A DNA stretch of 44,177 nucleotides from Paracoccaceae bacterium (GTDB lineage Bacteria; Pseudomonadota; Alphaproteobacteria; Rhodobacterales; Rhodobacteraceae): NCBI GenBank assembly GCA_029265455.1, contig JAJUJF010000005.1:1-44177 (forward strand), given 5' to 3'. Under the pieces are notes generated by a model that did not search any database, was not told where the DNA came from, and worked only from the letters and a program-made list of their open reading frames with translations. Each line of letters begins with the position of its first letter. The first letter of the stretch is position 1. The position numbers were made by a program, and so were the translations under genes. Below are positions 212-30,897 of the stretch, piece after piece.

Positions 212-214
212 AGG

Positions 215-300
215 ACCGTGGGCGAGAGGCGCCCACGCGTGAAAACCCAATCAACCATTTGAGTCTGAAGAGAAATCATATCCTACCCAGGTGTTAACAC
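215..300 (-). repeat. Copy A of an ~86-bp dispersed intergenic element ending in a stem-loop (CGTGGGCG-AGAGG-CGCCCACG at 217-237)
   Basis: Reverse complement aligns without gaps to 30810-30895 (about 66/86 identities by hand); contains palindrome GTGTTAACAC at 291-300. Confidence 0.85.
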
Positions 301-468: not shown

Positions 469-1338
469 ATGACGACGGATATTTCTTCCCGGCCGGAGCG
501 GATCGCGCTCGCGGAGATCGACGCGCACGCGCTGATCCGCGACCGGGCGAGCATCAGTCCGGAGGCCCTCGAGGAGCTGGAGGGTTCCGTGCTCCGGCAC
601 GGCCTGCGGATGCCGGTCGAGGTTTATGAAATCGAGGGGCAGGATGAGGGTGTGCGCTATGGCCTCATCTCCGGCTTGCGGCGGCTCACCGTGTTCCGCC
701 GCCTGCACGAGCGGACCGGCCGCCCCGAATTCGCCTCCATCCCCGCCTTCGTCCGCGCCCCCGGGAGCATTGCCGCCGCGATGGCGGCGATGGTCGAGGA
801 AAACGAGATTCGCGCCGAGATCTCCCCCTACGAGCGAGGGCGGATCGCGATGCTCGCACGCGACAACGGCTTCTTCCCGACCATCGAGGAGGCGGTGGAA
901 AAGCTCTATCCGGGGGCGTCGTCGCAGAAACGTTCGCGGCTCCGGGCGCTTGCGCGGCTTGCGGAGGAGGTGGAGGGATATCTGACCGCGCCCGAACTGC
1001 TCAGCCAGGCGCAGGCGCTGCGGCTTGCCCGTGCCTGTCAGGCGGGGTTCGGCGATCTCATCCGGGCGACGCTTGCCGAATCGGACATGACCGAGCCCGC
1101 GGGCCAGTGGCGCAACCTGCAGCCGATCCTCGCGGAAGCGGAGGCGATGGCGCGGGTGGAAGCGGTTCCCTCACGCCCCGGCCGCCCGCGCCGCGTGCTC
1201 CGGCCCCGGCGCGGGATCACCGTCCGGCGGGAGATGACCCGCGACGGCTGGGTGCTGCGCTTCACCGGCCGCGAGGCGACGGGCGAGCTGATCGAACTGG
1301 TCATGGACGAGATCGAGCGGTGGCTGCGGGTGGGATGA
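469..1338 (+). CDS. ParB/RepB-type N-terminal domain protein (orphan partition-like protein)
   Basis: ORF 394..1338 with likely start ATG 469 after GGGAGG; ParB-like 'GLISGLRRLTVFRRL' and 'MVEENEIRAEISPYERGRIA'. Confidence 0.8.
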   Translation: MTTDISSRPERIALAEIDAHALIRDRASISPEALEELEGSVLRHGLRMPVEVYEIEGQDEGVRYGLISGLRRLTVFRRLHERTGRPEFASIPAFVRAPGSIAAAMAAMVEENEIRAEISPYERGRIAMLARDNGFFPTIEEAVEKLYPGASSQKRSRLRALARLAEEVEGYLTAPELLSQAQALRLARACQAGFGDLIRATLAESDMTEPAGQWRNLQPILAEAEAMARVEAVPSRPGRPRRVLRPRRGITVRREMTRDGWVLRFTGREATGELIELVMDEIERWLRVG

Positions 1339-30809: not shown

Positions 30810-30895
30810 GCGTTAACACTCGGGTAGGTTCTGATTACCCAAGATCTTCAATGACTTGATGGGGTTTTCACGCGTGGGCGCCTTCCGCCCACGGT
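30810..30895 (+). repeat. Copy B of the ~86-bp dispersed intergenic element ending in a stem-loop (CGTGGGCG-CCTTC-CGCCCACG at 30873-30893)
   Basis: Gapless match to reverse complement of 215-300. Confidence 0.85.
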
Positions 30896-30897
30896 GC

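What the first reader, a model, noticed from the sequence alone, without database searches (positions are those of the whole stretch)
215..300. Copy A of an undescribed ~86-bp dispersed element with a conserved stem-loop end
The reverse complement of 215-300 aligns with 30810-30895 without a single gap (84-nt core about 64 identities, ~77% with flanking AC). Conservation is uneven. One end is GTTAACAC-NN-GGGTAGG-N-T-N-TGATT. The other is TTGATNGGGTTTTCACGCGTGGGCGCC-loop-CGCCCACG with an almost invariant 8-bp stem. The central ~20 nt are near random and the 5-nt hairpin loop differs (CCTCT vs CCTTC). Equal length with conserved ends suggests a functional, RNA-like or protein-bound element rather than a recent duplication. 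Candidates are a small-RNA family with its own terminator, a REP/MITE-like repeat, or a multi-protein operator.
Basis: partly seen in the sequence, partly recalled or inferred. Interest (0 to 1): 0.85.

Follow-up and report, generated by a model that had tools for sequence, protein, structure and literature searches.

The report
Dispersed IHF-type element at gene ends
The two look-alike 87-base stretches belong to a family of about 90 copies scattered between genes of this bacterium, mostly at gene ends; related but species-specific families occur in a few other genera, and the stretches look like docking sites for DNA-bending and DNA-binding proteins rather than small RNAs.

Summary
Copy A (214-300, minus strand) and copy B (30810-30896, plus strand) are two of about 90 diverged copies of an ~87-bp intergenic element in this Amaricoccus-like genome. 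Each has a TTAAC box, a centre matching the IHF consensus (WATCAANNNNTTR), the block TTTTCACGCGTGGGC, and a hairpin GTGGGC...GCCCAC. Unconstrained positions are near-random between copies while core blocks are almost invariant, and I saw no recent duplicates. Copies strongly prefer gene 3' ends and avoid divergent promoters. Two same-genus genomes and four other Rhodobacteraceae genera carry species-specific versions with the same layout (TTAAC, IHF-like site, TTTTCACGCGTGAAAA palindrome). The palindrome is all-or-none: 28-72 strand hits in 5 of 40 genomes, none in the other 35. In one relative a ~325-bp MITE with 9-bp target duplications ends 31-36 bp from the IHF-like site in 37 of 68 copies. 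No RAYT gene, terminal inverted repeats, target duplications of its own, U-tract or Rfam match were found. Best reading: a REP/RIP-like composite DNA-protein docking element. The palindrome-binding protein, the spreading machinery and the benefit are unknown; binding itself was not tested.

The parts
214..300 (-). Copy A of the element, full length (model positions 1-87)
293..297 (-). TTAAC box of copy A
   Evidence: sequence; conserved in alignment A1
252..264 (-). IHF-like site of copy A (imperfect: ACTCAAATGGTTG)
   Evidence: sequence; family consensus TCAANNNNTTG
231..245 (-). Invariant block TTTTCACGCGTGGGC of copy A
   Evidence: exact in 81 of 91 copies
217..237 (-). Hairpin CGTGGGCG-CCTCT-CGCCCACG of copy A
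30810..30896 (+). Copy B of the element, full length; between a 2Fe-2S ferredoxin gene and the 3' end of the convergent folE2-like gene
30813..30817 (+). TTAAC box of copy B
   Evidence: sequence
30846..30858 (+). IHF-like site of copy B (CTTCAATGACTTG)
   Evidence: sequence
30865..30879 (+). Invariant block TTTTCACGCGTGGGC of copy B
30873..30893 (+). Hairpin CGTGGGCG-CCTTC-CGCCCACG of copy B; ends about 5 nt from the folE2-like gene's stop codon

Best explanation
The element is a repeated, DNA-level protein-docking site of the REP/RIP kind placed at gene 3' ends. IHF (inferred from its consensus) bends the DNA in the middle and brings together a TTAAC box on one side and a palindrome (TTTTCACGCGTGAAAA in most carrier genomes, TTTTCACGCGTGGGC plus a third half-site GCCCAC in this one) bound by a still unknown dimeric protein. 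The folded complex would act as an insulator, roadblock or nucleoid-organising point, most often between converging genes; in G010 a transposon-like element (a MITE) uses it as a fixed-distance landing site. Shown: copy number, anatomy, position bias, uneven constraint, species-specific versions, patchy distribution, fixed-distance MITE insertion in G010. Inferred: IHF binding, the second protein, the role.
For: About 90 copies, nearly all full length. Core block exact in 81/91, [AT]TCAANNNNTTR in 73/91, while unconstrained columns are near-random; no recent copies. 3'-end bias: convergent gaps 30 vs 8.2 expected by length (p 1e-10), divergent 9 vs 33 (p 9e-9); hairpin end a median 11 nt from the opposing gene's stop. 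Same TTAAC / ATCAANNNNTTR / palindrome layout with the same core spacing in G127, G319, G374, G422, and variants in G008 and G010. Palindrome 28-72 strand hits in 5 of 40 genomes, 0 in 35. Four of nine G374 elements lie at the same gene ends, in the same orientation, as in G000 (tgt, serA, pgm, DUF188). MITE right end at -31 to -36 from ATCAA in 37 of 68 G010 copies, mostly with 8-10 bp matching target repeats: the insertion position is tied to the element.
Against: No binding data exist; the IHF call rests on a consensus recalled from the literature. No cognate palindrome-binding protein was found; the obvious candidate, the ParB-like gene next to copy A, failed the co-occurrence test. Positions are mostly not shared between G000 and G010 of the same genus, and G010's nearest tested relative G003 has no palindrome hits, so gain and loss are fast, which also fits a selfish element.
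Confidence: 0.5

Rival explanations
1. A selfish, non-autonomous mobile element (REP- or MITE-like) spread by an unidentified recombinase; the conserved blocks are what the recombinase needs and the 3'-end bias is only where insertions are tolerated.
For: Patchy, all-or-none distribution and a copy-free close relative; mostly non-shared positions in the same genus; 3'-end bias is typical of tolerated repeats.
Against: No terminal inverted repeats or target duplications in G000; no Y1 transposase (RAYT) in G000, G008, G010; no recent copies, and old, saturated copies still keep the core, which neutral decay of dead insertions would not give; shared gene ends with another genus.
Confidence: 0.3
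2. An RNA element: a 3'-UTR hairpin that ends or protects transcripts on either strand.
For: Hairpin ends a median 11 nt from the opposing stop codon; arms differ in a compensatory way between G000 (GTGGGC:GCCCAC) and G008 (GTGAAAA:TTTTCAC).
Against: No U-tract or terminator-like site at either copy; no Rfam family; hairpin absent in G127, G319, G422; the TTAAC box and the GGTTTTCA block are unpaired in the consensus structure.
Confidence: 0.13
3. Dispersed binding sites of the ParB-like protein encoded beside copy A (window 469-1338), in the manner of Noc.
For: Half-sites TTTCAC/GTGAAA equal those of parS (from memory); homologues lie near element copies in G010 and G127; weak ParB_N match.
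Against: No homologue at E<=0.001 in element-positive G374, while element-negative G003, G004, G007 and G014 have homologues at 49-59% identity.
Confidence: 0.03

Closest known systems
RIP/RIB (BIME-1) elements of Escherichia coli: IHF-binding repetitive extragenic palindromes (recalled)
   Same: About 100-bp intergenic repeats, tens of copies, IHF-consensus site beside palindromes, found at gene 3' ends
   Different: No sequence relation is evident (not formally compared); no RAYT gene in G000, G008 or G010; a single IHF-like site followed by one palindrome
REP elements as insertion-sequence targets (PMC1525189)
   Same: Intergenic palindromic repeats serve as landing sites for insertion sequences; G010 elements carry a MITE at a fixed distance
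   Different: Here the target is an IHF-like composite site and insertion is 31-36 bp 5' of ATCAA, outside the core
Correia/NEMIS elements of Neisseria (PMC2229807)
   Same: Small intergenic repeat with an IHF site
   Different: Correia elements have terminal inverted repeats and target duplications; none here
CIR intergenic repeats of Caulobacter and Brucella (PMC2229807)
   Same: Alphaproteobacterial intergenic repeats of about 110 bp
   Different: CIRs carry a conserved GANTC; only 22 of 91 copies have one. The CIR sequences themselves were not compared (paper not held)

Membership tests
REP/RAYT | Y1 tyrosine transposase (PF01797) in the genome | tested here: not met
   No match in G000, G008 or G010
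RIP/RIB (IHF-binding BIME) | IHF consensus site at a fixed place in the repeat | tested here: met
   [AT]TCAANNNNTTR in 73 of 91 copies, stricter WATCAANNNNTTR in 52; binding itself not tested
RIP/RIB (IHF-binding BIME) | REP palindromes of the enterobacterial type | not tested
   No comparison with REP sequences was run; the core is TTTTCACGCGTGGGC
IHF-bound site | Binding of IHF | not testable with these tools
   Needs gel shift or ChIP
MITE / Correia | Terminal inverted repeats | tested here: not met
   4 of 16 terminal bases match
MITE / Correia | Target-site duplications | tested here: not met
   Perfect 8- or 9-bp repeats not clearly more frequent than in re-paired flanks (0.023 vs 0.020; 0.011 vs 0.005)
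CIR | Conserved GANTC methylation site | tested here: not met
   22 of 91 copies
Intrinsic terminator / small RNA with terminator | GC hairpin followed by a U-run | tested here: not met
   No terminator-like site at either window copy
Known structured RNA | Match to an Rfam family | tested here: not met
   Window: only two tRNAs at gathering score; 16 element loci: nothing above any gathering score

The most novel reading that the evidence does not exclude
A chromosome-wide site system in some Rhodobacteraceae: an undescribed dimeric DNA-binding protein plus IHF occupies some 10-90 sites at gene ends, and the protein and its sites change together from species to species, so each genome has its own version or none at all.
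Probability: 0.3. Interest if true: 0.8.

Novelty: new variant of a known kind. Interest (0 to 1): 0.55.

Why it matters
It adds an alphaproteobacterial counterpart to the IHF-bearing intergenic repeats of enterobacteria, with a layout shared across genera and species-specific sequences, so the bound protein and its co-evolution with its sites become testable. The G010 case shows such a repeat fixing the place of a transposon-like insertion, a natural targeted-insertion system.

Tried and rejected
ParB-like gene beside copy A as the cognate protein: rejected by co-occurrence. RAYT/REP: no Y1_Tnp. Intrinsic terminator: none. Known RNA: none. MITE by its own ends: no TIR or TSD. CIR/GANTC: not conserved. 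Plasmid-borne copies: none with the G000 sequence; the short relatives' motif gave only partial hits in unrelated genera; the G010 MITE has no plasmid match. Empty site in G003 opposite G010's L238: flanks align but the intergenic region does not, so no boundaries could be read. Scans of viral contigs gave no answer. Literature: the core words occur only in six papers that look unrelated by title and abstract. A folE2-locus comparison in Amaricoccus shows no element there. A look for a further variant in parts of G004 and G006 found no second copy. A pattern scan of the window with a mis-set spacer found nothing and means nothing.

Full report
Check. The two stretches are real and where described. 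A blastn of each against the host genome (G000, 2.83 Mb in 209 contigs; the window is its whole contig C140) found 14 and 40 matches, and a covariance model built from 34 of them finds 91, most of them 86-88 nt long. Two of these, L122 and L123, are 90/91 identical and lie near contig ends, so about 90 are distinct. Copy B stands out in a search with copy A at E 7.6e-14.

Anatomy. Consensus: C-R-TTAAC-ac-TyGGGTAR, a variable T-rich stretch, WTCAA-tgrc-TTGAT, GGGTTTTCACGCGTGGGC, a 7-9 nt loop, GCCCACG. TCAANNNNTTG fits the IHF consensus WATCAANNNNTTR (recalled), with AT-rich DNA on its 5' side. Across 91 copies the block TTTTCACGCGTGGGC is exact in 81 and [AT]TCAANNNNTTR is present in 73, while many unconstrained columns have pairwise identity of only 0.30-0.45. 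Copies that have diverged this far elsewhere still keep these blocks, so I infer constraint on each copy. Flanks outside the element are unrelated.

Position. With a home-made gene caller, elements lie in convergent gaps 30 times against 8.2 expected from gap length (p 1e-10) and in divergent gaps 9 times against 33 (p 9e-9); the hairpin end is a median 11 nt from the stop of the opposing gene. In G127 the palindrome abuts the opposing stop codon in 8 of 18 cases; in G010 the 3'-end preference is not seen (22 divergent, 8 convergent), though MITE insertions there confuse gene calls.

Relatives. A FolE2 comparison gives Amaricoccus as closest named genus. Same-genus G010 has at least 54 copies of its own version and G008 a smaller set. 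A census of 397 Rhodobacteraceae genomes, mostly one per genus, found the same core spacing in G127, G319, G374 and G422. The palindrome TTTTCACGCGTGAA has 28-72 strand hits in five of 40 genomes and none in 35; G000 and G008 are among the 35 because their versions differ (a perfect palindrome counts on both strands). In a Tgt tree the carriers are scattered, and G003, without hits, pairs with G010, with 72 (only five of 23 inner branches are well supported).

Shared gene ends. Of nine G374 elements compared, four lie at the same gene end, in the same orientation, as in G000: tgt, serA, pgm, DUF188 (gene names are my reading of the sequences). I estimate about 0.2 expected by chance (my arithmetic from the counts). 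G008 shares two and G010 one; G127, G319 and G422 show none. Synteny on the other side of the element is not kept.

Hairpin. The second half-site pairs with a third in G000 (84% perfect versus 7% in controls) and G008 (all at least 6 of 7), weakly in G010, and not in G127, G319, G422. Between G000 and G008 both arms differ together. So the palindrome is general and the hairpin is a feature of the Amaricoccus group.

Target site. In G010, 37 of 68 elements have a MITE of 311-338 bp (TIR CACACTGCACGACA) ending 31-36 bp 5' of ATCAA; one more ends at -52. Most insertions with both ends found show 8-10 bp matching target repeats, 9 bp in the cleanest cases. Where there are two, the second lies outward of the first. 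The insertion point falls where the TTAAC box of G000 lies. This is best explained by a complex on the element that positions the insertion, but a sequence preference of the transposase would also fit.

Not explained: which protein binds the palindrome, how the element spreads, and why it is all-or-none. The ParB-like neighbour of copy A was tested and fails.

Noticed in passing
window 469-1338 (+): Orphan ParB_N-like gene (289 aa, just under Pfam's cut-off) about 170 bp from copy A; homologues sit near element copies in G010 and G127 but also occur in genomes without the element.
   Followed up: yes
G010 loci, e.g. L218, L233, L236, L244: A MITE family of about 325 bp, TIR CACACTGCACGACA, with 9-bp target duplications, inserted next to the element, sometimes in tandem. 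Its autonomous parent was not found.
   Followed up: partly
L122 and L123 (G000:C87:10327-10417, C16:15369-15459): Two near-identical copies (90/91) near contig ends, probably one locus assembled twice.
   Followed up: partly
L410 / L457 (G004, 3' of tgt): A lone AATCAACTACCTGAT ... GGCACGCGTGCC arrangement that might be a further variant; no second copy seen in 67 kb of G004.
   Followed up: partly
L267 (G127), just after the palindrome: Next to one element a separate GC hairpin (CGGGCCctcaGGCCCG) with a short T-rich tail, an ordinary-looking terminator.
   Followed up: no
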